DNA of 64,000 nucleotides, from assembly GCF_026151205.1 (NCBI RefSeq), contig NC_087081.1:1787886-1851885 (forward strand), given 5' to 3'. The notes below the pieces were generated by a model, which saw only the letters and a list, made by a program, of their open reading frames with translations, made no database searches and was not told the origin of the DNA. Position numbers and translations under genes: made by a program. Origin of the DNA: Bolinopsis microptera (Eukaryota; Ctenophora; Tentaculata; Lobata; Bolinopsidae). Of this stretch, positions 2,114-51,185 are shown one piece after another. Position 1 is the stretch's first letter, and each line of letters starts with the position of its first letter.

Positions 2114-3272
2114 GGCAGGTCCTCTACCTGATAGTTGGAACGTTGAGGGTGAGTTACACTGTATAACCTAGTGTAACTATGGTAACTAGTAGTGTAACTA
2201 TGGTAACTAGTAGTGTAACTATGGTAACTAGTAGTGTAACTATGGTAACTAGTAGTGTAACTATGGTAACTAGTAGTGTAACTATGGTAACTAGTAGTGT
2301 AACTATGGTAACTAGTAGTGTAACTATGGTAACTAGTAGTGTAACTATGGTAACTAGTAGTGTAACTATGGTAACTAGTAGTGTAACTATGGTAACTAGT
2401 AGTGTAACTATGGTAACTAGTAGTGTAACTATGGTAACTAGTAGTGTAACTATGGTAACTAGTAGTGTAAGTATGGTAACTGGTAGTGTAACTATGGTCA
2501 CTAGTAGTGTAACTATGGTAACTAGTAGTGTAACTATGGTAACTACTAGTGTAACTATGGTAACTAGTAGTGTAACTATGGTAACTAGTAGTGTAACTAA
2601 GGTACTTAGTAGTGTAACTAAGGTACCTAGTAGTGTAACTATGGTAACTGGTAGTGTAACTATGGTAACTAGAAGTGTAACTATGGTCACTGGTAGTGTA
2701 ACTATGGTAACTAGTAGTGTAACTATGGTACCTAGAGGTGTAACTAAGGTACCTAGTAGTGTAACTAAAGTACCTAGTAGTGTAACTATGGTAACTGGTA
2801 GTGTAACTATGGTAACTAGTAGTGTAACTATGGTAACTGGTAGTGTAACTATGGTAACTGGTAGTGTAACTATGGTAACTAGTAGTGTAACTATGGTTAC
2901 TAGTAGTGTACCTATGGTAACAAGTAGTGTAACTATGGTAACTAGTAGTGTAACTATGGTAACTAGTAGTGTAACTATGGTAACTATGGTAACTAGTAGT
3001 GTAACTATGGTAACTAGTAGTGTAACTATGGTAACTAGTAGTGTAACTATGGTAACTAGTAGTGTAACTATGGTAACTAGTAGTGTAACTATGGTAACTA
3101 GTAGTGTAACTATGGTAACTAGTAGTGTAACTATGGTAACTAGTAGTGTAACTATGGTAACTAGTAGTGTAACTATGGTAACTAGTAGTGTAACTATGGT
3201 AACTAGTAGTGTAACTATGGTAACTGGTAGGCAGGTCCTCTACCTGATAGGTGGAATGTTAAGGGTGAGTTA
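2114..3272. repeat. 43-bp imperfect direct repeats bracketing the 21-bp minisatellite
   Basis: The block starting GGCAGGTCCTCTACCTGATA occupies 2114-2156 and again 3230-3272, with about three mismatches. The two copies sit at the outer edges of the 21-bp array. Each contains the dyad CAGGT-CCTCT-ACCTG. This could be a target duplication, the flank of a locally duplicated cassette, or an ancestral unit into which the minisatellite expanded. Confidence 0.75.
2161..3229. repeat. 21-bp minisatellite, about 50 copies
   Basis: Head-to-tail copies of a 21-base unit that begins GTAACTATGGTAACTAG and ends TAGT. Most units are identical; a more diverged block (about 2590-2800) has AAGGTACCTAG variants, and one partial unit lies near 2980. 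The unit is a multiple of three and lacks stops in one frame of each strand, so it opens long artificial frames (plus strand reading VTMVTSS repeats). Each unit carries ACTAGT. The same monomer returns at 26.3-26.9 kb. Confidence 0.95.
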
Positions 3273-3432
3273 GGAATGTTGGATTAAGATTATATTTCTG
3301 CACATCGAATTAGGTCTTTGATTACAGTAAAAAGTTGTGGTTGTAATCCCAGTTAAAAAAAAGTAGTCTATTTAGAGATCATTAGTAAAACCCCGATTTA
3401 CTGCGCCCCTTTATAAAGCAAACCCCGAGTCA

Positions 3433-4524
3433 GGGTTTACTGTAACTAGGGGTTATACTGTCACTAGGGGTTATACAGTAACTAGGGGTTATACATGGTA
3501 ACTAGGGGTTATACTGTAACTAGGGGTTATACTGTAACTAGGGGTTTTACTGTAACTAGGGGTTTTACTGTAACTAGGGGTTTTACTGTAACTAGGGGTT
3601 ATACTGTAACTAGGGGTTATACTGTAACTAGGGGTTATACTGTAACTAGGGGTTTTACTGTAACTAGGGGTTATACTGTAACTAGGGGTTTTACTGTAAC
3701 TAGGTGTTTTACTGTAACTAGGGGTTATACTGTAACTAGGGGTTTACTGTAACTATGGGTTTTACTGTAACTAGGGGTTATACTGTAACTAGGGGTTATA
3801 CTGTAACTAGGGGTTTTACTGTAACTAGGGGTTTTACTGTAACTAGGGGTTATACTGTAACTAGGGGTTTTACTGTAACTAGGGGTTTTACTGTAACTGG
3901 GGGTTATACTTTAACTAGGGGTTATACTGTAACTAGGGGTTATACTGTAACTTTGGGTTTTACTGTAACTAGGGGTTTTACTGTAACTAGGGGGTTATAC
4001 TTTAACTAGGGGTTATACTGTAACTAGGAGTTTTACTGTAACTAGGGGTTTTACTGTAACTAGGGGTTTTACTGTAACTAGGGGTTATACTGTAACTAGG
4101 GGTTATACAGTAACAAGGGGTTATACTGTAACTAGGAGTTATACTGTAACTAGAGATTTTACTGTAACTAGGGATTATACTGTAACTAGGGGTTTTACTG
4201 TAACTAGGGGTTTTACTGTAACTAGGGGTTTTACTGTAACTAGGGGTTATACTTTAACTAGGGGTTATACTGTAACTAGGGGTTATACTGTAACTTGGGG
4301 TTTTACTGTAACTAGGGGTTTTACTGTAACTAGGGGCTTAGGGGTTATATATACAGTAACTAGGGGTTATACTGTAACTAGGGGTTTTACTGTCACTAGG
4401 GGTAATACAGTAACTAGGGGTTTTACAGTAACTAGGAGTTTTACTGTAACTAGTGGTTATACTTTAACTAGGGGTTATACTGTAACTAGGAGTTTTACTG
4501 TAACTGGGGGTTTCACTTTAACTA
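3433..4524. repeat. 18-bp minisatellite, about 60 copies
   Basis: Tandem units of GGGGTTATACTGTAACTA with TTT/TAT variation at the GGGGTTTTAC position. The unit length is a multiple of three, giving artificial TRGYTV/TRGFTV reading frames at 3495-3752 and 3755-4009 that I do not treat as genes. It shares the core GTAACTA with the neighbouring 21-bp array, which suggests the two satellites derive from each other or from one seed. Confidence 0.95.
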
Positions 4525-17134: not shown

Positions 17135-17642
17135 TCAATTGAGGTTAGTGAGGTTAGTGAGGTTAGTGAGGTTAGCGAGGATAGTTAGGTTAGTGAGGAT
17201 AGTGAGGTTAGTGAGGTTAGTGAGGTTAGTGAGGTTAGTGAGGTTAGTGAGGTTAGTGAGATTAGTGAGGATAGTGAGGTTAGTAAGGTTAGTGAAGTTA
17301 GTGAGGTTAGTGAGGTTAGTGAGGTTAGTGAGGTTAGTAAGGTTAGTGACGTTAGTGAGGTTAGTGAGGTTAGTGAAGTTAGTGAGGTTAGTGAGGTTAG
17401 TGAAGTTAGTGCGGTTAGTGCGGTTAGTTAGGTTAGTGAGTTTAGTGAGGTTAGTGAGGTTAGTGAGTTTAGTGAGGATAGTGAGGTTAGTGAGGTTAGT
17501 GAGGTTAGTGAGATTAGTGAGGTTAGTGAGGATTGTTAAGTTAGTGAGGATAGTGAGGTTAGTGAGGTTAGTGAGGTTAGTGAGGTTAGTGAGGTTAGTG
17601 AGGTTAGTGAGGTTAGTGAAATTAGTGAGGTTAGTGAGGTTA
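17135..17642. repeat. 9-bp minisatellite (GGTTAGTGA)n, about 56 copies
   Basis: Tandem GGTTAGTGA with scattered single-base variants (GATAGTGAG, GTTAGTAAG). It replaces the beginning of the fifth 1.4-kb unit. The left junction follows AACAATGTTCAATTC and the right junction rejoins the unit at TTCACAACAATTCACCATC. Because the period is nine, both strands carry stop-free frames (LTNLTN and VRLVRL types), which I treat as artefacts. Confidence 0.95.
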
Positions 17643-18780: not shown

Positions 18781-19263
18781 CAATTTCGAGACAATTTTTA
18801 GGCCTTCAAACTACAAAATGTTTTGAAGCAACATTTTAGATTAAATATAAAATTAAGGAACATTGAATTAGTGATAATTTCATTAGGATATATTTTGTAT
18901 TTGAATTTGTTGAAACTTAATTAAACTAATTACAACACTACAATTCTATTACATTTATTGAGAATTATGTAATGTAACGTGATGGGAATATTTTAAGCGG
19001 GCATGTCCTGTCCAAACCCAGGATGCACAAAACGAAGAATTTGTTTTAACTTTGTATGAAAAGCATCAATAAAAAATATATATCTTTAAACTAAATTAAT
19101 TTTATGTTTTTGGGTTTGCAATTTCGTTCAATACGTAAATCTGTGAATAATTTATTTTTATTTCATTTTATTTTTGAGGACATACAACATGTTCTACACT
19201 TTATAAGTCTAGAGATGTAATGTCAGACCCCTTACTGAAAGGATCAAGAAAGCAAGATAGAAG
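18781..19263. other. No gene recognised
   Basis: AT-rich sequence downstream of the tandem array with no open frame, splice pattern or repeat that I can support. Confidence 0.4.
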
Positions 19264-19506
19264 ATGCTTGGGCACGTTCTCAGAAGTGGTGATGACACTC
19301 CCGCCTTCTTATCTTTCAGATTTGCATGTTTAGGATGTTTTGACTACAAAGGAAGGAGGGGCAGACCTCGTTTAAATTTATTTGATTTATTATTAAAAGA
19401 CATTATGACAAAGAAAATTATTGTGATTGTGAATAAAAGATTTAGTTTAAGTAATTTTAACGATTACAAAGCTCATGATAGACGTTTATGGAGAAGCTAT
19501 GGGTGA
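19264..19506 (+). pseudogene. RTE-like LINE: C-terminal tail of reverse transcriptase ORF
   Basis: An 80-codon frame beginning MLGHVLRSGDD, then GRRGRPRLNLFDLL. The same order (RMLGHILRGQED, then EGRRGRPCLNLLDVI) forms the C-terminus of the larger LINE at 49218-50630. This is therefore the 3' remnant of a related RTE-like LINE, 5'-truncated and lying directly upstream of the AlkB-bearing LINE. The GRRGRP motif is common near the end of RTE-type ORF2 proteins. Confidence 0.75.
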
Positions 19507-19701
19507 GTCGAGACTACTCGGCCACTCGATTTTATGATTTAATTTCTATTATCTTGTGTTTGCTGTATATAGTTGATTAATAATAAGTCTATAGTCTACT
19601 ATATATATTTTCAATCATTTTACTACTTTCATTACGCATCAATATTTTTCCTCTGTAATCTACCTTTTCTTATCGCACTGAGCTTGTGATTTATACTGAT
19701 C

Positions 19702-21471
19702 ATGCGACGAAATTCTACACCTAATACCTCTACACCTACATCATCCCAGAGGAAGAAACTAGCTTCTAAAGCTGCTTCTGAGTCAATCGCTGACTCAGAA
19801 GCACCTTCTACCGGTATGTTGGGGCTTGGGGTGTCAGGGAATTACACGTTTGCAGCAACAACATGCCTTCACTTGTTAAGCTTACTGCCTGCTCCCGATT
19901 TAGATTTTGAGTTCGAAAGACTCCGCCTCCTTTCGAAAAGTGCTACTAAAGCAAGCACAACGGACAACAAAATTTCTTTTTTAAGGAAACATTTATTAGG
20001 CCAATGTGCCCTAGACGCTGACGAGACAATGAACAAATTAACTGCGAGTCTAAAACTCATTTCATGTACCGTTAATGAAGAGGTTGAGAAGGCGGTCAAC
20101 AGCATCACGGAACGAGCCTGCACTGCGATCCAGGAAGTCTCTGAAGAGTCCAGGAAGCAGACCTCTCTCATCGTTGAAGCAGCTAGCAGTAGTTCTCCAC
20201 AGACTCTCTCCCCTTCCGGTGAAGTAGAAAGCATACCTAACCCACCACCTCCGGTAAGATTTTTGGACTGTGACTTTGGTGATCTTTCTTTTGATGAAAT
20301 CTACCGCGAGCTTGACTTTAACATGAAACACCCGGGGGGCCGTTCAACGTCATATTTTGGCTCGGTACCTTACAGTTATGGCAGAACCAACCACCGTGCA
20401 ACCCATGATAAGCCCTTGCCACCTGTCCTAAAGCGCATTTTTGATTGTTTGCATGAATCCGATCCTGACTTTACTCCCACGAACTATACCTGCCTCTGTA
20501 CTTACTATAAGGACGGGTCAGTTGGTATTCCATTGCATAGTGACAGCGAATCCAGCATTGTTGAAGATAGTCTGATTTACACTGCATCATTTGGCTCTAC
20601 CAGAATTATGAGAATGTCAACGTCGACAGGCCCTTTCGTTGAGCATAACATCCCGCTTGAGCACGGCTCTGTCTTTGCAATGTCTCGATCTGATCAGAAC
20701 CACTGGCAGCACGGCATTGAACGTGATCCTATGTTAAGGCAGCCACGAATCTCGCTCACTCTTCGCAAGTTGAAACAGCCTGATCCCACGGCCTTACCAG
20801 CACCTGCAGCCCCTACTCGGGTCCCGCCTGTTGCACCACCTACACAGATACAGTCACCAGCGTCCCGTCACTCCAGAGTCCTCTTAATTCACGACTCAAT
20901 ACACCGAGAAACGCCAGAATGGCTGTTCGACCAGATACCTGGCCACCGATGTCAAAAGCGCCTTAACTATCAACTAGTGAACTCACTGGAACATCAACAT
21001 GAGTTCAAACATTCTAAAGCAGTCGTACTTTCCTGCGGCATTAATGACCTAGCTAGGTATGGGCAGTCGGCCAGGAGTCTTGCGGACAATTTCTGTCCCC
21101 GTTTTATAGACTCTTGTAACAACAACAAGAATACCGAGTTTATGTTTTGTGCTTTATCTATGACTAAATTTAACTGGTTGAATGCAGAGATTGACGCTTT
21201 TAATATCATAATGTTGAACCTGGCTAAGGATATTCCAAATCTGAGTTTTTTCGATGCCCATGCCGTGATCAAGCGTGCTAACTCATACTACGTATGGGAC
21301 CGCAACGACAGACATGGCATCCACTTATATCACGAGGTGCAAAGGGTAGTGGCACATGAACTTGTTAACTGCGTTGGCAAGTTATGTGGATCTGAACAGA
21401 GACGTCACAGGAACTGTGAGTGGCTCTATCACCACAAGCCTAACAGTCTCTCCAGATATAACCGAAGCTGA
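19702..21471 (+). CDS. LINE ORF1: AlkB-like 2OG-Fe(II) dioxygenase plus SGNH-hydrolase-like protein
   Basis: 589 residues. Residues 1-35 are basic and Ser/Thr-rich; about 120-160 is a helical, charged stretch. Residues about 186-356 form an AlkB-type dioxygenase: YYKDGSVGIPLHSD has the HxD iron ligands H279 and D281, WQHGIE supplies the distal ligand H337, and PRISLTLR gives the RxxxxxR pair R349/R355 that binds 2-oxoglutarate and substrate in the family. A Pro-rich linker follows (362-385). About 392-560 is SGNH-like: HDSI (Ser399, block I), CGINDL (N448, block III) and HGIH (His541, block V), but the usual Asp three residues before that His is His538. AlkB enzymes remove alkyl groups from RNA or DNA; esterase domains are known in CR1-type ORF1 proteins. 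A role in keeping element RNA or cDNA copyable is inference. Confidence 0.8.
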   Translation: MRRNSTPNTSTPTSSQRKKLASKAASESIADSEAPSTGMLGLGVSGNYTFAATTCLHLLSLLPAPDLDFEFERLRLLSKSATKASTTDNKISFLRKHLLGQCALDADETMNKLTASLKLISCTVNEEVEKAVNSITERACTAIQEVSEESRKQTSLIVEAASSSSPQTLSPSGEVESIPNPPPPVRFLDCDFGDLSFDEIYRELDFNMKHPGGRSTSYFGSVPYSYGRTNHRATHDKPLPPVLKRIFDCLHESDPDFTPTNYTCLCTYYKDGSVGIPLHSDSESSIVEDSLIYTASFGSTRIMRMSTSTGPFVEHNIPLEHGSVFAMSRSDQNHWQHGIERDPMLRQPRISLTLRKLKQPDPTALPAPAAPTRVPPVAPPTQIQSPASRHSRVLLIHDSIHRETPEWLFDQIPGHRCQKRLNYQLVNSLEHQHEFKHSKAVVLSCGINDLARYGQSARSLADNFCPRFIDSCNNNKNTEFMFCALSMTKFNWLNAEIDAFNIIMLNLAKDIPNLSFFDAHAVIKRANSYYVWDRNDRHGIHLYHEVQRVVAHELVNCVGKLCGSEQRRHRNCEWLYHHKPNSLSRYNRS

Positions 21472-22113
21472 GCGCTTTACAAATCATTGATACCATTCTG
21501 ATTAAAAAATGCGATTCACTTTTTTCTCAACTTCCAGTCCACCTTTAACAGATCGTTACCAAGATAGATCATATTATAATGAAATGATCTGATTGGTGGA
21601 ATTTTTCTCATTATCTGAAAAGCTCATTCATTATCAGTATCTCTTATCACCCGATCGCACACAAAACATCTTACTCTACAAATCTGTATCATCCTAAATC
21701 AATGAGATTTCATAACTCTATACAATATTCAAAATTCACATACAAATCTATAAATAATCAAGTGCGTTCTCTTCAGTATTACTCAAGTTCAGTGCGATAG
21801 TCCCTTATTACGTAAACGCTACAAACAAATCAAATACAAATAACACCTCACAAAACTACACAACACAAAAGCAACCACTTTATTCGATTTCTATTTTTTA
21901 GCCAAATCAGTTATTTAAATCATACTGATAAGGCCCTAGATAAGGACACTTTATTTCACTTAATTATCCGATTTTAGCTTAAAATAATATAATTTACTTT
22001 TAAATCATATCACGATTCTGTAGCATACAGGACCTCCGGTTCTCGTGAAAGAATCTGATTTGAACTATAGTTTTATATACTATCAGTATCATAATCATAA
22101 TATTTAGTTATAA

Positions 22114-25100
22114 ATGGAACCCACTGTTACATCTGAAAATAAAGTCAAGATCAAATGTTCAAGCTGCAGCGGCTGGTGTTACTCTATTAGAAATATTCGC
22201 ACATGCTCATGGTGTCAAAGTAATGTCCATGTCAAATGTTTTAAGGATAATTTAGGCTGTACGAGTTGCTGTGAAAGTATCATTCCTGGATTTCACGCAA
22301 CCTACTATGAAATCTATGACGACTACAGTAAACTTAATAGTGACATATTTAATCCGTACGATCAGAATAGTCGATTTAATCTTATTGGCGACGCCATGAC
22401 CAACGAAGAGCATCAAGATTCAACTTGGAGCAATATTTCATCTTTCCTAACTAGTTGTCAGTATAAACAACAACGTAACGTGAAAAAATCTACCTGCTCT
22501 CAACTTAAAACATTTTCTATGAACATAAGATCCCTTATTAAGAATATAGATCAACTACGTGATGATATTGAGACTTATGATAAGTATGATATATTGTGTT
22601 TTAACGAAACTAATTGCACTTTAGGGAAATTACCGAACGGAATAAACGACGTTACCTTAGATGGATTTCATGAACCATTTATCCAGGATCCAATTCGCCC
22701 ATCTGGAAAAGGTGGGGGGCTAGCCACTTATGTACACAAACGTGTAGTCGATTATGATAAAATTGATATTTTCACTCCAAACCCTGAACCAACTAATACT
22801 AGTGGCGAATTTCAATTTATCAAGCTCCATCAGTGCAAAGGATACAACAGAACGAAAATAATTGGCAATGTTTACCGTTCTCCCGCTAGGAGACCTGAAG
22901 CGTTTCTAGAAATTTTCAAAAATACGCTGCACAACCTAGGGAGACACACCCGTAAACATATGACGCTTCATGGAGATTTCAACCTTGATTTACTGAAGCA
23001 CAGCAGCGACCAAGCATGTCAGAACATTATAGATATTGCGTCCTCTTACGGTTTTATTCAAATTGTATCACGCCCAACTCGCCTAACGGACCATAGTGCC
23101 ACGCTTATTGACCACATCTACACAAACAATCTTGAGGATACAATAAGCTGTAACGTCTTAACGACAGATATGTCTGATCACTTAGCAATAGTCACTACAA
23201 TAAATCTTGATAACACGCCAACCAGCAGCTACCGCTCTGCGTCTAACTCACAAAATGTATCTCAAACTGAAACACGTAGATTTAACGACACCAACAATCA
23301 AAAATTCAGAGACTTAATTACAGATGAAAGTTGGTCAGAAATTTTTAACAATACCAATGATGCCAACGAACAGTTCAATAATTTAAATACGGCTTATAAT
23401 AAGATTTACGAGTCCGCCTATCCCACAAAAAGACAATCACGAAGACAAAATGAACGTGTTAATCCGAAACCATGGATGCTGCCCTGGCTCGAAGAAGCTA
23501 TAGAACGTAAAAATGAGTCATATTATGATTTTGTTAAGGAACCATCTGATAGTAACCGCAGTAAATATGACCGTCTGAAGAAGTTTTGTAATAAACACAT
23601 CGATAAAGCTAAAAACAAGCACTTCAAAAAATTTTTTGAGCAAAACAAAGAAAATTCTAAGAAGCAGTGGCAAATGATAAACAGTCTTCTTAATAGGAAA
23701 AAATCTAAACCTACTTCAATTAAACTGACTGACGAAGACGGCTCAATCAGCACTCCGGCAGCTGTAGCAGAAAAATTTAACGATTACTTCTCAAACATCG
23801 CTCCTAAAATTAAGTCTGAAATTAGTAGTAGGACCACTTTTGATCCTGGTGGAACCCATAGCACACTTCGCAACGCCACTTCAAGTAGTATTTACTTAAA
23901 GCCAGTCACTGCCACAGAAATTCAGGACGTCATAAACCTGCTTAAGAATAAAGCCACACTAGACACTAAAATTGAACCTCTAAAAATCGCTAACAGCTGT
24001 CCCAGTTTTACTAGTGTACTAGCCCACGTTGTCAACAGTTCTTTTGAACAGGGGATCTTTCCACAGGCTTTGAAAGAAGCGAAGGTGGTCCCAATTCACA
24101 AAGGTGGATCTAAATCTGACATAAAAAATTACAGACCAATATCTCTTCTTGCTTCTTTCTCTAAAGTATTTGAAAAGCTAATGCATAACCGAGTTATAAG
24201 TTTTTTAGATAAATACAGCATACTATGTGAAAACCAATACGGTTTTCGCCCGGGTAGGTCTTGTGAACATGCTCTTCTCAACGCAAAAGACACCATTCTT
24301 AATTCAATGTCTAAAAAGCAGGTAACTTTACTTCTTTTAATCGATTTCAGCAAAGCTTTCGACCTTGTGGATCATTCCATACTCTTGCGCAAGCTGGACC
24401 ATTACGGCATAAGGGGTCAAGCCTTAAACTGGTTTAAGTCATATCTCACTAACAGGAAACAGTTTGTATCAATTGGCTCGTCAAAATCTTCAACCAACCA
24501 AATTTTATACGGCGTGCCTCAAGGGTCAATATTAGGACCTTTACTTTTTATAATCTACATAAACGACCTGCCTCAAATATCAGATATAGCCAATTTCATT
24601 ATGTACGCAGATGATGCCAACATCTTCCTGATAGGAGAAAATCTTAATGAAGTTTACGATAAACTAATAACTCTTAGCGATGCTTTAGTTAAATGGGTAG
24701 ATAATAATGGTTTAGCTCTCAACCTTAAGAAAACAAATTATATGATCTTCTCTCGACAAAGAAATCTTAATTATCGTGATGTGGCAATTTCTGGTGTCAC
24801 AATTGAGAGAAAAACAGAAGCCCGTTTTTTAGGAGTTATAATAGATGATAAACTAAACTGGTCCCATCATATTTCTGCCATGAAAATGAAAATGTCCAGA
24901 TACATAGGAGTCATGTACAAACTTAAAAAATATCTGCCTCTCGAAGCACGTCTTCAAATTTATCAAAGTTTTGTGCAGTCACACCTTAATTATTGCAGCC
25001 TTGTATGGGGTTTTGCTGCCAAGTCTCATATTGAATCGCTTTTTGTAAAACAGAAAATGGGCCTTCGAGCAGTATTACCTGGTTTCGTCAATTACTGGTA

Positions 25101-25585
25101 CAAGGACGGTATCCCCCCAGCAAGTACCAAGTCTGGCTTTTATTCACATAAAATATTGACAGTACACAGTATCATTGTAAAGAACGCACTCATTTTAATG
25201 CATTAATTGAAAAACTTTCCTCATCTAGTACCATTGTCTCTCAAGAAAACAATTCCCAAAAGCGCACCATTATTTAATACTAACCTGGATTCTATTCTCA
25301 CTACACAATGGTCAGAAAAGTATGGTCAACACCCTTACAACAACTCAGTATTTTTTAAAGGTCCATTATTAGCAATAAACCGATATAATGTTGCAGCAAC
25401 TTCCCCGCCTAGTCTATTTAACCTGAACATTTACAAAACTTGTATAAAAACTATGCTCATCGATCAGCAAAATGAAAACATCGAAGACGAATGGCCTAAT
25501 TTCATGTTATTTTGTATAACAGGACTAAGAAAATCAAAGCGTAACATAAACCAAAATGCCGATAATAACCTTGTCTCTACATCTT
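22114..25585 (+). CDS. LINE ORF2: PHD-like finger, APE endonuclease and reverse transcriptase, one in-frame stop
   Basis: Open for 1030 codons to TAA at 25204-25206, then open in the same frame for 126 more codons to about 25585, so the frame is otherwise intact. Residues 15-53 hold a Cys4-His-Cys3 pattern (C15/C18, C31/C34, H39/C42, C49/C52) like a PHD or RING finger. The APE-type endonuclease spans about 130-370: SMNIRSL, FNETN, GGGLATYV, HGDFNLDL near 286, LIDHIYTN, MSDHLAI. The RT spans about 600-900: LIDFSKAFD (Asp744), GVPQGSILGP and YADD (Asp833/834). The endonuclease nicks target DNA and the RT primes there. The part after the stop is a C-terminal domain of unclear role. A C-to-T change at a CAA codon would explain the stop. 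Confidence 0.85.
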
Positions 25586-25966
25586 AAATTATATGCACAC
25601 ACTTATGCATCACTCAATAAACGTCGCATATCTCATCAATTACACTGCCAACATAGGACATTCTTTTTTATCGCCGCGATTTCAAATCAAGTTAAAAATT
25701 CTACAAATTTGAAGTGCTCAGTCTTGTTTTACTTTTCTTATCTTTACCTATTAACCATTGGAAAATAAAACTTTAGGCTATAAACCTTCATTGCATACTT
25801 TACCGGTAGAGTCTAAATTGAATAGTTTGAGATTTCCTTTACATTTTATATTTATGCATGTGCCCCACGGGGATGAATTTCTTATTACCATTGATATTAT
25901 ATATACTTTTTTGAGTAAACATTGGCTGGTACCACGGGCCAGTCCCCAACAAAAAAAAAAAAAAAA

Positions 25967-26303
25967 TACTGTGTGCAAGTGTTTGTTTCCTGCGAAAGTA
26001 AATTTATTTCTTGGCCTGTCTCCAAATAATGTGTGTTTTATTTATTGCATGGAATTCCATTAATGGTTGTAATAAAGTTAACCGTTCAAGCACTTCATCT
26101 TCTCAAATCGGCTGAAAATAAAAGCTTAATGAAAACTTAATAACAATAAACAAAATTCACAAAAGCAAAGTTATAAATGTTTTTTGACCCGAATCTTTTG
26201 TAACGGTCATCTTAATAAGCGGAGTACCAAACAATAATACACCCAAATAATGGTACAACAGATTATTGATACATAACAATTAACACGCTTCTCTGCTAAA
26301 CTT
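25967..26303. other. No gene recognised
   Basis: A short stretch between the LINE poly-A and the inverted satellite. I see no open frame or repeat I can support. Confidence 0.4.
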
Positions 26304-26941
26304 TGGTAACTATTAGTGTAACTATGGTAACTAGTAGTGTACCATAGTTACATTATAAGTTACCATAGTTAAACTACTAGTTACCATAGTTACACTACTA
26401 GTTACCATAGTAACACTACTAGTTACCATAGTTACACTACTAGTTACCATAGTTACACTACTAGTTACCATAGTAACACTATTAGTTACCATAGTTACAC
26501 TACTAGTTACCATAGTTACACTATTAGTTACCATAGTTACACTACTAATTACCATAGTTATATTACTAGTTACCATAGTTTCACTACTAGTTACTATAGT
26601 AACACTACTAGTTGCCATAGTTACACTATTAGTTGCCGTAGTTACACTACTAGTTACCGTAGTTATACTACTAGTTACTTAATATGTAACTAATAATGTA
26701 ACTATGGTAACTAGTAGTGTAACTAGAGGTGTAACCATGGTAACTAGTAGTGTAACTATGGTAACTAATAACTAGTAATGTAACTATGGTAACTAGTAGT
26801 GTAACTACGGTAACTAGTAGTGTAACTACAATAACTTTGGTAACTAATAGTGTAACTATGGTAACTAGTAGTATAACTACGGTAACTTGTAGTGTAACTA
26901 TGGTAACTAGTAGTGTAACTATGGCAACTAGTAGTGTAACA
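26304..26941. repeat. 21-bp satellite in inverted orientation blocks
   Basis: The monomer of the 2.16-3.23 kb array recurs here in three blocks: forward 26304-26340, reverse about 26341-26680 (about 16 units), then forward about 26685-26941 (about 12 units). The two large blocks face each other with only a few bases between, forming an imperfect inverted repeat with arms of about 250 bases. More variants are present than in the first array, so this copy is older or less homogenised. Confidence 0.9.
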
Positions 26942-36118: not shown

Positions 36119-38773
36119 CAGGAAACAGAGTCTGTTAAGGAATCCGGAAGGATGAATAAGATTCTGAAATCCTGTAACGACAACAAACATACACTAGAAG
36201 CCGTTTACAAACCAAACGGAGACATCACCAAAAATGCAGAGGAGACATTGGAGGTCATGACACGAACCCACTTCAAGGATAGTGTCACTGATCCGCCAGT
36301 GCCTCCACCTGGTCCTCTACCAATCACCACCACCTTACTCAATACCATCTACAGCCCAGACAGAATCGAGGAGGCTCTTAAATCCTTCGATCCGTTGAAA
36401 GCTGCTGGACCCGACACCCTCAAACCTATCATCATACAGAAAGCTTGGACACACATCAAAGACATCACCAGAACCATTATGACAAAAAATCATGAAACCC
36501 AACACATTCCAACTTTGTGGAAAGAATCCCTTGGAATCTTTCTCCCAAAGCCTGGAAAAACTGACTACAACCAACCAAAGTCATTTCGAACTATCACCCT
36601 TTCTCCAGTGATGTTAAAACTACAGGAGAAGGTGATACTGTGGCATATGCAACACGACCTTAATATCGCTAAAGACATCAACAAACGACAATTTGGCTTT
36701 AAGAAAGGATGTTCAACCGAAGCAGCCCTTCATAAAGTTACTCACACCATCGAGCGCAGGATAGCTAAGAAGGGATATGTCCTAGGCGTCTTTCTAGATA
36801 TAGAGGGAGCTTTTGATAATGTCTCTTTCAAGGCTATTTCTGACGCTATCAAGACCACGAAAGTGGATCTGGCCACAGCACAATGGATTATCAACATGGT
36901 AACTAACAGATTCATCACATTAAATCATAAGGATAAGTCGACAAGGGTTCGGATCCGGAGAGGGTGCCCTCAAGGTGGCATCCTTTCCCCTTTCCTCTGG
37001 AACCTGGTAGTCGATGATCTCCTGGCCTACACCGCAAGAGACATACCAGGTTATCTGCAAGCTTTTGCAGACGATCTGCTCTCTCTAGCGGAGGGGAATG
37101 ATTTAGACATCATCTGGAACAGAACACGCAAAACCATCAACACAATAGAAAAATGGTGCCAAACCAAAGATCTATCCATAAGCGCACTCAAAACACAAAT
37201 AGTCATGTTTACCTGGAATAAGAAATGGACACTAAGACCTGTGGTGGTGGGTAACACCACCATAGGTCTATCCAAATCTGCCAAATTCCTAGGAGTGACC
37301 CTCGACAGCAAGCTCAATTTCAATGAACATATCACCAATACCACCAAAAAAGCTACGGCATCCCTTATGCAATGTAGAAGAGCTGTCGGCCCCACTTGGG
37401 GTATGAGCCCTAAAACATGCAAATGGATGTACACCGCTGTCATCAGACCTATTCTATCATACTGCTGTAGTATATGGATTAGAGCAACCCAAACAGACAC
37501 CAACGCGAGGAAGTTCAAACGAGTTCAGGCATTGGCATTGAGAATGATGTCTGGTGCCATGCCTAGTACTCCCTTCATCGCACTGAACCACCTCACTAAC
37601 ACTCCAGATATCATACTTTTCCTGAGAGGTGAAGCAGCAAAGGGCACAGCCAGGCTTCAAGCTTATGGAAGCCTAACCCTCGAAACTATCGCCCCCAGAA
37701 AAGGTACCATCACAACTCACACCACTATCAACAAACAATTCATGGTAGATCTCAACATACCACCCAAAGCAGAGAGAGACCTATCTATACCAACCATGAT
37801 GCTTGAACGACGCTTCACGGTCACCACTCCTGGAGCTGACAACATTGGTTATAGAGGCTCACTCCAAAACACCATCGACAACATCCCCAGTGAAACCATC
37901 ACCTGCTACACAGACGGGTCACGCACAGACTCAGGTAGCGGGGCTGGTTATATTATCACCACAGACAACAACAACACTACACTAGATGAAAGATCATTCA
38001 AGCTTCCCGATTATTGCACCGTTTATCAAACAGAACTCACTGCCATCATCGAAGCTTGTAAATATCTATCAACTTATACAAACACACACATCATCATATG
38101 GTCAGACAGTCTCTCCTCTATTCAAGCCATATCCTCACCTTCAACGAGGAGTAGGACTACTAGAGACTGTTACGACACCCTCAATACACTCGGATCCACT
38201 AACACCTTAGAGATCAGATGGATAGCTGCACACATTGGATTGTGGGGTAATGAAAAAGCAGACGAGCTGGCCAAAAATGGTACAACCAGTGAATCCACTT
38301 TGAATTGCCCAATTCCACAATCTTACATCAAACGCCTGATCAACGACAAAGTCACAAAACTTAATCAAGAATCATGGATTACTGATGGTCCCAGACACAC
38401 TAAACTGACACTTGGACATAAAAACATCAACATCATCAAAAATCTCAACACTACACTCAGTAACAACAGACAAAATTATAGAACTGCAGTGCACCTCATC
38501 ACGGGACATTGTGGCCTCAACAAACACCTACACACCATTCGCAAATCAGACACAAGTGCTTGTCCTAAATGCGGCGACGAAGAGGAGACTGTCTCACACT
38601 TTCTCGGACAGTGCCCGGCTATTGCCCAAATAAGAGGTCAATATTTCCGGGACTACTACCTCTCTGTCAATGACATATTCGACAACCAACACATCTCCAC
38701 CATTGTCAACTTTACAAACCACACTAAACGCTTAGTGGTGCCAGAGGAGTTGGACCAGACAGGTGTAACATAG
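36119..38773 (+). CDS. LINE ORF2 (3' part): reverse transcriptase, RNase H and CCHC finger
   Basis: An open frame of 873 codons from ATG 36152 (open back to the truncation at 36119). RT: FLDIEGAFDN (Asp216), RGCPQGGILSPFLWN, QAFADDLL (Asp307/308), KFLGVTLDSKLNF. RNase H: CYTDGSRTDSGSGAGY (Asp588), TELTAIIEAC, IIWSDSLSS and AAHIGLWGNEKADELAK, so the acidic residues and the HxGxxGNExAD motif are present. The C-terminal zinc knuckle CPKCGDEEETVSHFLGQC follows. This order is that of the I/Jockey-related clades that kept RNase H. The endonuclease and ORF1 are missing. The enzyme copies element RNA at a nicked target and removes the RNA strand. Confidence 0.9.
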   Translation, partial: QETESVKESGRMNKILKSCNDNKHTLEAVYKPNGDITKNAEETLEVMTRTHFKDSVTDPPVPPPGPLPITTTLLNTIYSPDRIEEALKSFDPLKAAGPDTLKPIIIQKAWTHIKDITRTIMTKNHETQHIPTLWKESLGIFLPKPGKTDYNQPKSFRTITLSPVMLKLQEKVILWHMQHDLNIAKDINKRQFGFKKGCSTEAALHKVTHTIERRIAKKGYVLGVFLDIEGAFDNVSFKAISDAIKTTKVDLATAQWIINMVTNRFITLNHKDKSTRVRIRRGCPQGGILSPFLWNLVVDDLLAYTARDIPGYLQAFADDLLSLAEGNDLDIIWNRTRKTINTIEKWCQTKDLSISALKTQIVMFTWNKKWTLRPVVVGNTTIGLSKSAKFLGVTLDSKLNFNEHITNTTKKATASLMQCRRAVGPTWGMSPKTCKWMYTAVIRPILSYCCSIWIRATQTDTNARKFKRVQALALRMMSGAMPSTPFIALNHLTNTPDIILFLRGEAAKGTARLQAYGSLTLETIAPRKGTITTHTTINKQFMVDLNIPPKAERDLSIPTMMLERRFTVTTPGADNIGYRGSLQNTIDNIPSETITCYTDGSRTDSGSGAGYIITTDNNNTTLDERSFKLPDYCTVYQTELTAIIEACKYLSTYTNTHIIIWSDSLSSIQAISSPSTRSRTTRDCYDTLNTLGSTNTLEIRWIAAHIGLWGNEKADELAKNGTTSESTLNCPIPQSYIKRLINDKVTKLNQESWITDGPRHTKLTLGHKNINIIKNLNTTLSNNRQNYRTAVHLITGHCGLNKHLHTIRKSDTSACPKCGDEEETVSHFLGQCPAIAQIRGQYFRDYYLSVNDIFDNQHISTIVNFTNHTKRLVVPEELDQTGVT

Positions 38774-49217: not shown

Positions 49218-51185
49218 TCAACCATCTTCTAACTTCTTCCATTCCTCCCTATCTAAAGCCAAAAATCTAAGGTCTTCGAAATCAGTCAAATTCTTAAGTC
49301 TAATATCAAGATTTCTACTAGTCAAGTCTTTTCTAATAACATCTAATAAGTTTAAACATGGTCTACCCCGTCTCCCTTCCATAAAAATATCAGAATTTAT
49401 AGCAAATAACATAGAGGTGTATGCTGGTGAGTCTTCCTGTCCTCTTAAGATATGTCCTAACATTCTCCATCGAAACTTAGAGACTCTCACAGACAAGGGA
49501 GTGACATAACAACGAGCATAGAGTGCCTCATTAGAAATAACCCCAGTAGGCCATCTGATGTTGAGGATTCTTCGGAGGTGTTTGCGATGAGCAATATCAA
49601 GTTCATTCAACGAAGCTAGTGGTGCAGCCCAGGAGTTGCAGTTGTAGAGTAGAATAGAGACTACTTGTGCCTCGTAGATTTTGATCTTCCTTTGGACTGA
49701 AATCTTGCTCTTCATCCAAACTTTCTGAAATTTACTAAAGGCAACATTACCAAGGAATATTCGATTCTTGATATCCTTAACAGTGCACATCAACGATCCT
49801 AAAGTTTTGTTAGAGCGCCACTCTTCATCACCTCTATACACTTTTCCAACAATCACCTTGCGTTTAACAGTGGGTTTAGGATCTGCTAAATAAAAATGGA
49901 CAAATTCAGTCTTGGAAGAATTGATATGAAGGTCCCACTGCTGGAATATATCTTTAGCGATAGGAAGCATTTCTTTGAGTGGAGCAAGTTCAGTGTTATT
50001 AAAGTCAATATCATCAGAGTATCCTGTTTCGAGTGGCATGAATTCTTCTGAGATAGGAGGATTAGGGATTGGATGATTTACTGGGTAAGGTGTTGATGAT
50101 ACTTGGGAGAGTACAGATCTGAGGTGAATAAGTGCAGCGGCTTCAACAACAGTAAATAGATTACCTGATAGTGCATCTCCTTGAAATGCTCCAGTTGTGC
50201 TTTGGAACTCAATTGATACAGTATTATTGACTTTTACTTTCAACACTGTGTTTGATAGTAGGAGCCGTACCATCCTAATTTCATCACTAGTACAGCCAGC
50301 ATCTTCAAGAACATTGAGTACTGTTTCTCTGCTGATGGTGTCAAAGGCACTTGACATGTCTATACTCATTCTGTGGTAGCTCCAATGCTTTCTAAGTACC
50401 ACTGAGGTTAGCATACGTTGAGACCAAATTATATCGCCACAACTTCTACCTCTCTTGTAAGCACTTTGTGTAGGACCGGTGTACTGATCTAGCTTGCCTT
50501 GGATACGTTTTAGGGTAATCATTGACAGTAATTTTCTGGAGCAGTTTGAGAGGGTGAGAGGTCTGATGTTTGCTGCTGGACCAAGTGGTTTCTTAGGCTT
50601 TTGGAGTGGAGTAATATTGCCTTTTCCCAATAGATGTTATGGTGGTGTTTGTTTCAAATGCGGTATTATACAGTCTGCATATTTCTGAAATACACTTCTG
50701 TTTGCATACTTAATCAATTCACTTGGGATATCATCAGGCCCATTGGCTCTACCATTCTTCAAAGCTTTAGCAGCTATCTCAACTTCAATAGCAGTAATAG
50801 GGTCAGCGAGAGGACTAGGTTGATCAAAGAAAGTGTCAATAGGCTCAACTGTATGTTTTGCAGTGAACTTCTCTTCAAAGTGGTTCTTTAGTGTAGCAGC
50901 TTTTCCAGTGTCTGTACCTATGAAGTTAGAGTTTTCATCATGCACACTTATGGTTGGAGCACGTTTGATACCTGCTAGTTGGCGAGTGGCTGTAAAGTAT
51001 GCTCTAGAACTATCAGTTTCGTTTATCTCTTCAGCAAGAGTGTCTGCATGCTCTTCTTGAAGGAGCTTGATTCTCTTACGAGTGTCATTTTGAATACGAT
51101 TGATTTTGGTACGTATAACTGATCTATCTTCAGAGGTGTTGTTCTGATTGAGTAGAGCTTGTAGAACTTTCTTTTCATCAGACAT
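49218..51185 (-). pseudogene. RTE-like reverse transcriptase, one in-frame stop
   Basis: Two segments in the same frame (51185-50640 and 50636-49218) are separated only by a TAA at 50637-50639. The upstream part has NGRANGPDDIPSELIKYA, the usual pre-RT block. RT motifs: RPLTLSNCSRKLLS, MSIDMSSAFDTI (catalytic Asp), GAFQGDALSGNLF and TGYSDDIDF (YSDD instead of YADD). The C-terminus has HRKHLRRILNIRWP, RMLGHILRG and EGRRGRPCLNL, ending KKLEDG. About 656 codons if the stop is ignored. Confidence 0.85.

What the first reader, a model, noticed from the sequence alone, without database searches (positions are those of the whole stretch)
19702..21471. LINE ORF1 fuses an AlkB-type dioxygenase to an SGNH-hydrolase-like domain
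Seen: HxD (H279/D281), distal H337 in WQHGIE and R349/R355 in PRISLTLR, followed after a Pro-rich linker by HDSI, CGINDL and HGIH blocks. Known: AlkB enzymes remove alkyl lesions or methyl marks from nucleic acids, some plant RNA viruses carry one, and CR1-type ORF1 proteins can carry an esterase. I do not recall an established description of both joined in a LINE. Inference: the element may protect or demethylate its own RNA or cDNA, or counter host methyl-based silencing or m6A/m1A marking.
Basis: partly seen in the sequence, partly recalled or inferred. Interest (0 to 1): 0.9.

Follow-up and report, generated by a model that had tools for sequence, protein, structure and literature searches.

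The report
LINE ORF1 joining AlkB and SGNH
A jumping gene in an animal genome makes a protein that joins a nucleic-acid demethylase-type enzyme to a lipase-like domain, and the same pair recurs in many related elements and in another kind of jumping gene, which suggests the elements carry their own RNA or DNA repair tool.

Summary
ORF1 (19702-21471, 589 aa) of a LINE (about 19611-25966) carries an AlkB-type 2OG-Fe(II) dioxygenase (PF13532, E 2.7e-19) followed by an SGNH-hydrolase-like domain. It is not a single copy: the window's own 264.65-Mb genome has ten 98-100% copies (this one included) and full-length open relatives at about 62% and 33-39%. H279, D281, H337, R349, R355 and S399, N448, H541 are invariant in 22 of 22 aligned ORF1s. 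Both domains are under purifying selection.

The pairing is general here: 140 of 150 listed AlkB places have an SGNH match within 2.5 kb on the same strand. It occurs with three divergent ORF2 groups, and in reversed order in a giant-ORF class that, in the one locus scanned, carries a Helitron domain.

Among solved structures the AlkB domain is nearest ALKBH3/ALKBH2, so I favour clearing of m1A/m3C-type lesions from single-stranded intermediates over m6A erasure. That step is inference. In the window's group (A-F) the SGNH catalytic Asp is replaced; other groups keep it.

Precedents: an AlkB ORF in orchid Gypsy elements, and esterases in CR1/L2 ORF1. I found no report of the fusion.

The parts
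19611..19701 (+). 5' UTR of the element (about 91 nt)
   Evidence: Five other copies of the 98-100% family share 86-91 nt upstream of the ATG with the window and then diverge into unrelated flanks (two further fetched copies, L002 and L006, lay in the other orientation and were not compared)
19702..21471 (+). ORF1, 589 aa
   Evidence: ten 98-100% copies without stops in the genome, this one included
19702..20238 (+). ORF1 N-terminal region (residues 1-179), no known domain
   Evidence: No credible Pfam match (best is Phage_Arf, E 0.15); helix 126-157 in a low-confidence model; dN/dS 0.26 between families A and B
20254..20772 (+). AlkB-type 2OG-Fe(II) dioxygenase domain (residues 185-357); H279, D281, H337, R349, R355
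   Evidence: PF13532 E 2.7e-19; ALKBH3 in PDB 2.1e-16; five residues invariant in 22 of 22 ORF1s and in 20 of 20 rows including three host-like genes
20773..20871 (+). Pro-rich linker (residues 358-390)
   Evidence: sequence
20872..21468 (+). SGNH-hydrolase-like domain (residues 391-589); S399, N448, H541 invariant; block-V Asp replaced by His
   Evidence: Lipase_GDSL_2 E 1.4e-4, below cut-off; profile to PDB 3p94 E 0.037; alignments
22114..25206 (+). ORF2, 1030 aa; frame stops at TAA 25204-25206, whereas a 62%-family ORF2 (L009) runs on to 1158 aa
22150..22245 (+). Cys-rich zinc-finger-like N-terminus of ORF2 (C1/PHD-like)
   Evidence: C1_1 E 0.0034, below cut-off
22519..23181 (+). endonuclease domain of ORF2
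   Evidence: Exo_endo_phos E 6.2e-7
24112..24843 (+). reverse transcriptase domain of ORF2
   Evidence: RVT_1 E 1.5e-36
25915..25966 (+). 3' terminus: GTAAACATTGGCTGG...CCAGTCCCCAAC with a short potential stem, then poly(A)
   Evidence: Same 3' end followed by A tails of different length and different flanks in 4 of 6 family B loci and, diverged, in 4 of 4 family C loci; not found in the two F loci

Best explanation
ORF1p of this LINE is an RNP protein with a catalytically competent AlkB dioxygenase of the ALKBH2/3-like kind fused to an SGNH-like domain. Most likely it travels with the element's own RNA and removes alkyl or methyl groups from the base-pairing face (m1A, m3C) of the single-stranded template, and perhaps of the exposed cDNA, so that reverse transcription at the target site is not blocked. 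The SGNH domain probably gives localisation or assembly: lipid or acyl binding in the window's group, possibly true hydrolysis in groups that keep the full triad. SHOWN: both domains, their fusion, conserved catalytic AlkB residues, multi-family conservation, purifying selection, and the same pair in a giant-ORF class with a Helitron domain in the locus scanned. INFERRED: enzymatic activity, substrate, association with the element's own RNA, and the role of the SGNH domain.
For: PF13532 match, with ALKBH3/ALKBH2 the closest solved relatives. The Fe- and 2OG-binding residues HxD...H...R.....R are invariant in 22 of 22 ORF1s and in 20 of 20 rows of the tree set, groups A-L plus three host-like genes. 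dN/dS between one family A and one family B copy is about 0.08 for each domain, with dS near saturation. Pooled over five within-family pairs (one per family A-E, of nine computed), pN/pS is 0.23 (AlkB, Fisher p 1e-5) and 0.15 (SGNH, p 1e-6). Ten 98-100% copies, in different flanks where compared: the ORF was carried through recent transposition. AlkB and SGNH lie together at 140 of 150 listed places. The pair also sits in a Helitron-type ORF; Helitrons move through single-stranded DNA (established knowledge), and a single-strand substrate is what LINE RNA and a Helitron strand have in common.
Against: No activity, expression or RNP association is tested. The transposon AlkBs carry RxSxTxR where the three host-like genes carry RxNxTxR, so substrate preference may have shifted. 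Resemblance to ALKBH3 does not fix the substrate; chains named DNA N6-methyladenine demethylase are matched about as well as E. coli AlkB (2.1e-4 and 1.5e-4). In A-F the SGNH triad Asp is replaced. The N-terminus has no recognisable RNA-binding domain, and the AlkB domain is slightly acidic (pI 6.1). One within-family pair (B_L010/B_L013) has 4 non-synonymous and 0 synonymous changes in AlkB. Only L029 was scanned for Helitron domains.
Confidence: 0.5

Rival explanations
1. Epitranscriptomic or epigenetic counter-silencing: the AlkB domain erases m6A (RNA) or 6mA (DNA) marks that the host uses to silence or sequester the element, as proposed for the orchid Gypsy AlkB.
For: The orchid Gypsy-encoded AlkB demethylates m6A in ssRNA in vitro (PMC9289625: abstract, passages and discussion seen). 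PDB chains named DNA N6-methyladenine demethylase are matched at 2.1e-4 to 1.7e-3. Massive amplification of the domain across this genome's elements fits an arms race.
Against: ALKBH3 (3.6e-23) and ALKBH2 (8.7e-19) are matched far better, and ALKBH5 and FTO are not among the 35 PDB sequences at E <= 1 (their presence in that copy was not checked). The orchid protein is of the ALKBH5/9 kind. Presence in a Helitron-type ORF does not need an mRNA mark.
Confidence: 0.22
2. The enzyme acts on host nucleic acids or proteins (tRNA, host mRNA, histones) to make the cell permissive, rather than on the element's own RNA.
For: ORF1 is a separate reading frame; AlkB homologues with tRNA and protein substrates exist (recalled).
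Against: Fusion in the presumed RNP protein, next to an SGNH domain already known in ORF1ps (PMC3905857), points to action within the RNP. Conservation in different element classes favours a cis benefit.
Confidence: 0.12
3. The AlkB and SGNH folds serve only as non-enzymatic nucleic-acid- or lipid-binding scaffolds.
For: In families A-F the SGNH block-V Asp is replaced by H, H, R, N, N, N. Oskar is called a non-catalytic SGNH protein in PMC3905857.
Against: The AlkB Fe/2OG residues are invariant in 20 of 20 rows. SGNH Ser and His are kept in 17 of 17, and the Asp in 11 of 11 rows of the other groups.
Confidence: 0.13
4. Artefact: a chance ORF, a captured host gene at one locus, or an assembly duplication.
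For: None found.
Against: Ten 98-100% copies, different flanks at those compared, divergent families on many contigs, purifying selection.
Confidence: 0.01

Closest known systems
Esterase-type ORF1 of CR1/L2/RTEX elements (ZfL2-1; PMC3905857)
   Same: ORF1 of a LINE with a C-terminal SGNH domain behind a linker; Ser, Asn and His of the active site kept
   Different: AlkB domain in addition. Window group lacks the block-V Asp. The transposon-specific His four residues before the oxyanion Asn is Ser here. None of the three rows of the PDB profile search is named as that esterase (its presence in that copy was not checked). That paper's text does not contain 'AlkB' or 'dioxygenase'.
AlkB ORF of Phalaenopsis Ty3/Gypsy elements (PMC9289625)
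   Same: A retrotransposon that carries its own AlkB domain; demethylase activity shown there in vitro
   Different: LTR element, separate ORF, ALKBH5/9-like m6A demethylase, one orchid lineage; no SGNH mentioned in what I saw. Here: LINE ORF1 and a Helitron-type ORF, ALKBH3/2-like, fused to SGNH, many families.
AlkB domains of plant RNA viruses (Alphaflexiviridae, Betaflexiviridae, Closteroviridae; named in PMC9289625)
   Same: AlkB carried by a parasite with a single-stranded RNA stage
   Different: Part of a viral replicase (recalled); no reverse transcription
ALKBH3 and ALKBH2 (cellular)
   Same: Catalytic motif and a stretch of about 150 residues alignable
   Different: RxSxTxR instead of the RxNxTxR of the host-like genes; fused to SGNH; 16 of 17 transposon rows form a separate group, J does not
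GDSL esterases of Terminons and additional domains of Helitrons (RPA, OTU, AP-EN; PMC6431247, passages seen)
   Same: Mobile elements with an SGNH/GDSL accessory domain; Helitrons with extra domains
   Different: 'AlkB' occurs 0 times in that review. Here SGNH and AlkB lie together in the N-terminal part of a Helitron-type ORF.

Membership tests
non-LTR retrotransposon (LINE) | ORF2 with apurinic-type endonuclease and reverse transcriptase | tested here: met
   Exo_endo_phos 6.2e-7, RVT_1 1.5e-36
non-LTR retrotransposon (LINE) | A-tailed 3' end and termini shared between copies | tested here: met
   5' end shared with five copies, 3' end with four B and four C loci
non-LTR retrotransposon (LINE) | target-site duplication | tested here: inconclusive
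   No duplication flush with both ends found
AlkB 2OG-Fe(II) dioxygenase | HxD...H iron triad and R.....R 2OG-binding motif on the Pfam profile | tested here: met
   PF13532 over cut-off; residues invariant
AlkB 2OG-Fe(II) dioxygenase | demethylase activity | not testable with these tools
   needs protein
ALKBH2/3 subfamily | best profile match to ALKBH3/2 among solved structures | tested here: met
   3.6e-23 and 8.7e-19; ALKBH8 3.1e-7, E. coli AlkB 1.5e-4, DNA N6-methyladenine demethylase 2.1e-4
ALKBH2/3 subfamily | RxNxTxR as in the host-like genes | tested here: not met
   RxSxTxR in 17 of 17 transposon rows, RxNxTxR in 3 of 3 host-like rows
SGNH hydrolase | block I Ser, block III Asn, block V His | tested here: met
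   Ser, Asn and His in 17 of 17 rows; S399, N448, H541 invariant in 22 of 22 ORF1s
SGNH hydrolase | block V Asp (DxxH) | tested here: not met
   His in the window; 0 of 6 rows in families A-F, 11 of 11 in groups G-L
SGNH hydrolase | Pfam curated cut-off | tested here: not met
   20-23 bits against 32.9 for the window; 34.0 for relative L032; group J has no SGNH match at E <= 0.05
CR1/L2 esterase-type ORF1 | transposon-specific His (H191) four residues before the oxyanion Asn | tested here: not met
   Ser444 here, by position relative to N448; feature from PMC3905857
CR1/L2 esterase-type ORF1 | N-terminal coiled coil | tested here: inconclusive
   helices only in a low-confidence model
LINE clade (CR1, L2, Rex1 ...) | placement of RT among reference elements | not tested
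   no reference LINE RTs at hand

The most novel reading that the evidence does not exclude
AlkB plus SGNH is a portable two-enzyme module of mobile elements, kept in both orders and in unrelated classes (LINEs and Helitron-type rolling-circle elements) of one animal lineage. It would be a transposon-encoded repair or proofreading system for single-stranded transposition intermediates, a function I have not seen described for LINEs or Helitrons.
Probability: 0.35. Interest if true: 0.92.

Novelty: new variant of a known kind. Interest (0 to 1): 0.8.

Why it matters
What ORF1 proteins do beyond packaging RNA is a long-standing question, and the role of the SGNH domain in LINEs is unexplained. 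An ORF1 that carries an apparently active nucleic-acid demethylase predicts a testable activity on the element's own intermediates. The recurrence of the same pair in LINE ORF1s and a Helitron-type ORF suggests that chemical damage or marking of single-stranded intermediates limits transposition enough to select for an on-board enzyme. At least 140 AlkB places in this genome have an SGNH neighbour, against nine ALKBH genes in humans (recalled), so annotators should not count such copies as host repair genes.

Tried and rejected
Structure prediction: two single-sequence AlphaFold2 runs on window sequences (whole ORF1, mean pLDDT 38; SGNH piece, pLDDT 36) were too poor to use, so no fold search was made.

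Scans of the viral and prokaryotic collections gave no relative of ORF1, so spread beyond this genome is unknown. No target-site duplication was found. NCBIfam had no hit for ORF1.

The SGNH piece alone has no PDB relative by phmmer (the one row is a thiol peroxidase, E 1.9), and its profile reaches only E 0.037. These weaken the SGNH call for the window on its own. In group J (L033) Pfam finds no SGNH at E <= 0.05; it was read from the motif blocks. J does not cluster with the other transposon AlkBs but falls, on a long branch, with the host-like genes: a second capture cannot be excluded.

An exchange of ORF1 between lineages (group L) was considered and is not supported: the AlkB of L groups with G/K (90/90), but its SGNH groups with A-F (99/95) and its ORF2 with C and F.

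Considered and rejected: chance ORF, read-through of a host ALKBH gene, a single frozen copy.

Full report
OBSERVATION. Pfam assigns residues 223-355 to PF13532 (AlkB-type) with E 2.7e-19, 70.6 bits against a cut-off of 31.2. The closest solved relatives by sequence are chains named ALKBH3 (2.1e-16) and ALKBH2. The C-terminal part matches Lipase_GDSL_2 weakly: E 0.001 in the whole ORF, 1.4e-4 as a domain, 20-23 bits against 32.9. It has no PDB relative by single-sequence search; its profile reaches a GDSL-like lipase (3p94) at only E 0.037, aligning the GIND and G-x-H blocks.

ELEMENT. ORF2 at 22114-25206 has a Cys-rich N-terminus, endonuclease and reverse transcriptase. Its frame ends at a TAA at 25204-25206, while ORF2 of a 62%-family copy runs to 1158 aa, so this copy's ORF2 is probably shortened. 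Five other copies of the 98-100% family compared with the window share 86-91 nt upstream of the ATG and then diverge, which places the 5' end near 19611 (L002 and L006, in the other orientation, were not compared). The 3' end (25915-25966) recurs with different flanks and A tails of different length in 4 of 6 family B loci and, diverged, in 4 of 4 family C loci; it was not found in the two F loci. No flush target-site duplication was found.

COPIES. A search of the window's own genome (264.65 Mb, 232 contigs) with ORF1 lists 76 matches. Ten are 98-100% identical over residues 1-589 or 4-589 without a stop (the window's own copy is one of them). Ten cover residues 4-588/589 at 61-62% (eight without a stop). 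Further long open relatives lie at 33-39%; other rows are fragments or carry stops. I fetched 20 loci of the more distant families and aligned 22 ORF1s (some are shortened at the N-terminus): H279, D281, H337, R349, R355 and S399, N448, H541 are invariant. All 22 match PF13532; 13 of 22 match Lipase_GDSL_2 at E <= 0.1.

SELECTION. Between one family A (window) and one family B copy, dN/dS is 0.077 (AlkB), 0.078 (SGNH) and 0.26 (N-terminus), with dS near saturation, so the ratios are rough; for E against F dS is beyond saturation in both domains. Pooled over five within-family pairs, one per family A-E of the nine pairs computed, pN/pS is 0.23 (AlkB, Fisher p 1e-5), 0.15 (SGNH, p 1e-6), 0.28 (N-terminus) and 0.26 (linker, p 0.08) (counts). 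Single pairs vary: B_L010/B_L013, not in the pool, has 4 non-synonymous and 0 synonymous changes in AlkB, and B_L009/B_L014, in the pool, 7 and 5.

BREADTH. PF13532 gives 151 matches in the genome, with 150 of 587 candidates scored, so this is a lower bound. Fifteen further loci were fetched: 13 picked from the AlkB list for different frame lengths or high score, and two (L039, L043) from SGNH lists. Three (L036-L038) are host-like, with AlkB and no SGNH found. The other 12 show both domains: G (L030, L040), a 630-aa class (L043), H (L031, L041, L042, with a PHD-like finger that in L031 is below the Pfam cut-off), J (L033: AlkB, then a weakly coiled-coil-like stretch, then SGNH read from its motif blocks only), K (L035), L (L039), and I (L029, L032, L034), where the order is SGNH, Pro-rich stretch, AlkB (in L034 the two lie in different frames). 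In L029 the I-type ORF continues into DUF6570 (8.1e-14) and Helitron_like_N (1e-7, over the cut-off); the other I-type loci were not scanned that far. Of the 15 rows of the I-type SGNH search, 11 cover nearly the whole query and all 11 have an AlkB place nearby; the other four are a fragment, two rows of a decayed copy, and a LINE of the 630-aa class. Six of the 11 lie in frames of over 2000 aa.

CO-OCCURRENCE. I tested the 150 listed AlkB places for an SGNH match within 2.5 kb on the same strand, using rows typed and parts of the rows (chosen in part with the unmatched AlkB places in view; rows left out can only lower the count). 88 matched and 52 more, so 140 of 150. Of the ten others, three are the host-like genes. 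Four have an SGNH row 3.0-7.6 kb away on the same strand (read by eye). Three are unexplained. Chance would give well under one such neighbour per hundred places (some 330 SGNH rows, 264 Mb, two strands; my arithmetic). The reverse count, SGNH places without AlkB, could not be made, because the AlkB list is cut at its best 150.

RELATIONS. The AlkB tree (20 rows) separates 16 of 17 transposon rows (100/97) from the host-like genes; J_L033 sits with the latter on a long branch. All 17 transposon rows have RxSxTxR, the three host-like rows RxNxTxR. ORF2s fall into three groups, {A-F, L}, {H} and {G, K}, at about 20-30% identity between groups (ten rows in the tree, the short H2 piece left out; J, L042 and L043 not placed). 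For L the markers disagree: ORF2 with C and F (84/95), SGNH with A-F (99/95), AlkB with G and K (90/90). This is unresolved. Reticulate ORF1 evolution is known for CR1/L2 elements (PMC4120745: abstract, discussion, word search).

SGNH CATALYSIS. In the 17-row alignment Ser, Asn and His are kept throughout. The block-V Asp (DxxH) is present in 11 of 11 rows of G-L and in 0 of 6 rows of A-F (H, H, R, N, N, N). The window's SGNH domain may be a Ser-His dyad enzyme, may use another Asp (D533 is invariant within A-F), or may only bind. The transposon-specific His191 of known LINE esterases (PMC3905857: introduction and first part of results read) has no counterpart by position.

MECHANISM. Shown: a conserved, selected AlkB-SGNH ORF1 with an intact iron and 2OG site. 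Inferred: enzymatic activity; the substrate, for which I favour m1A/m3C-type lesions on single-stranded nucleic acid because the profile ranks ALKBH3, ALKBH2, ALKBH8 and then, about equal, E. coli AlkB and a DNA N6-methyladenine demethylase, and does not list ALKBH5 or FTO at E <= 1; and action on the element's own RNA. Such lesions stop reverse transcriptases, and Helitrons expose single-stranded DNA (established knowledge), so one need could explain the pair in both classes. The m6A route, shown in vitro for an orchid Gypsy AlkB (PMC9289625: abstract, passages and discussion), and a 6mA route remain the main rivals.

LITERATURE. Twelve paper searches were sent and seven answered: AlkB+CR1+retrotransposon, 3 papers; AlkB+ctenophore, 3; AlkB+SGNH+transpos, 0; AlkB+Helitron, 15; ORF1+non-LTR retrotransposon+2OG-Fe, 1; retrotransposon+AlkB+non-LTR+domain, 14; Repbase+ORF1+AlkB, 1. 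Judged by titles and starts of abstracts, only the orchid paper concerns an AlkB domain in a transposon; I opened none of the other listed papers. The word AlkB is absent from the ORF1 survey of 448 elements, the esterase paper and the giant-transposon review. The library holds only open-licence papers, and Repbase entries were not searchable, so an earlier annotation is possible.

HOST. The genome has 13 large contigs: C1-C11 and C13 are 16-26 Mb each and sum to 242.9 Mb (lengths), and C12 reaches at least 15.0 Mb. Ctenophores of the Hormiphora-Bolinopsis group have n = 13, and Bolinopsis microptera has a k-mer genome size near 254 Mbp (PMC10232365, passages). A ctenophore host is an inference and was not tested.

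Mended against the calls: the group L reading (the SGNH tree speaks against an ORF1 exchange), the number of Helitron-confirmed loci (one), the 6mA-demethylase match, the compared copies and 3' ends, and the count of paper searches.

Noticed in passing
L029:3883-9999 (+); also L032, L034: Giant ORF (open frame 3388 aa) with SGNH then AlkB, long Pro/Ala-rich and repeat stretches, DUF6570 and Helitron_like_N: the same two domains as the LINE ORF1, in reversed order.
   Followed up: partly
L039 (ORF1 817-2427, ORF2 from 3222): The three markers disagree: ORF2 and SGNH group with the window's group, AlkB with G/K at 90/90; its SGNH keeps the block-V Asp.
   Followed up: partly
19600-19640; L001, L005, L007, L008 upstream of ORF1: The 5' end of several copies carries variable partial tandem duplications of the first 20-40 nt of the element (ATCATTTTACTACTTTCATTACG...), perhaps from 5' template jumping.
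   Followed up: no
25915-25966: 3' terminus with a short potential stem (CTGG...CCAG); in families B and C the stretch reads CTGG...CCGG and CCGG...CCGG, so pairing may be kept; possibly an RT recognition hairpin.
   Followed up: no
19210-19508: Just upstream of the element lies a stretch that, read by eye, resembles the C-terminus of the RT ORF at 49218-50630 (-): the LINE may have inserted near an older element.
   Followed up: no
about 40-46 kb and 57-63 kb: The same series of tandem repeats recurs about 16-17 kb apart (40375/57730, 42764/58887, 44434/61587, 45509/62670), suggesting a segmental duplication within the window.
   Followed up: no
36152-38773 (+), 49218-50630 (-): Two further RT ORFs: one with RNase H (and a weak zf-RVT match), one RT with a weak DUF6451 match.
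   Followed up: no
2169-4524, 17140-17642, 26299-26940: Long minisatellites with 21-, 18- and 9-bp units; the 21-bp GTAACTATGGTAACTAGTAGT array occurs at two places of the window.
   Followed up: no
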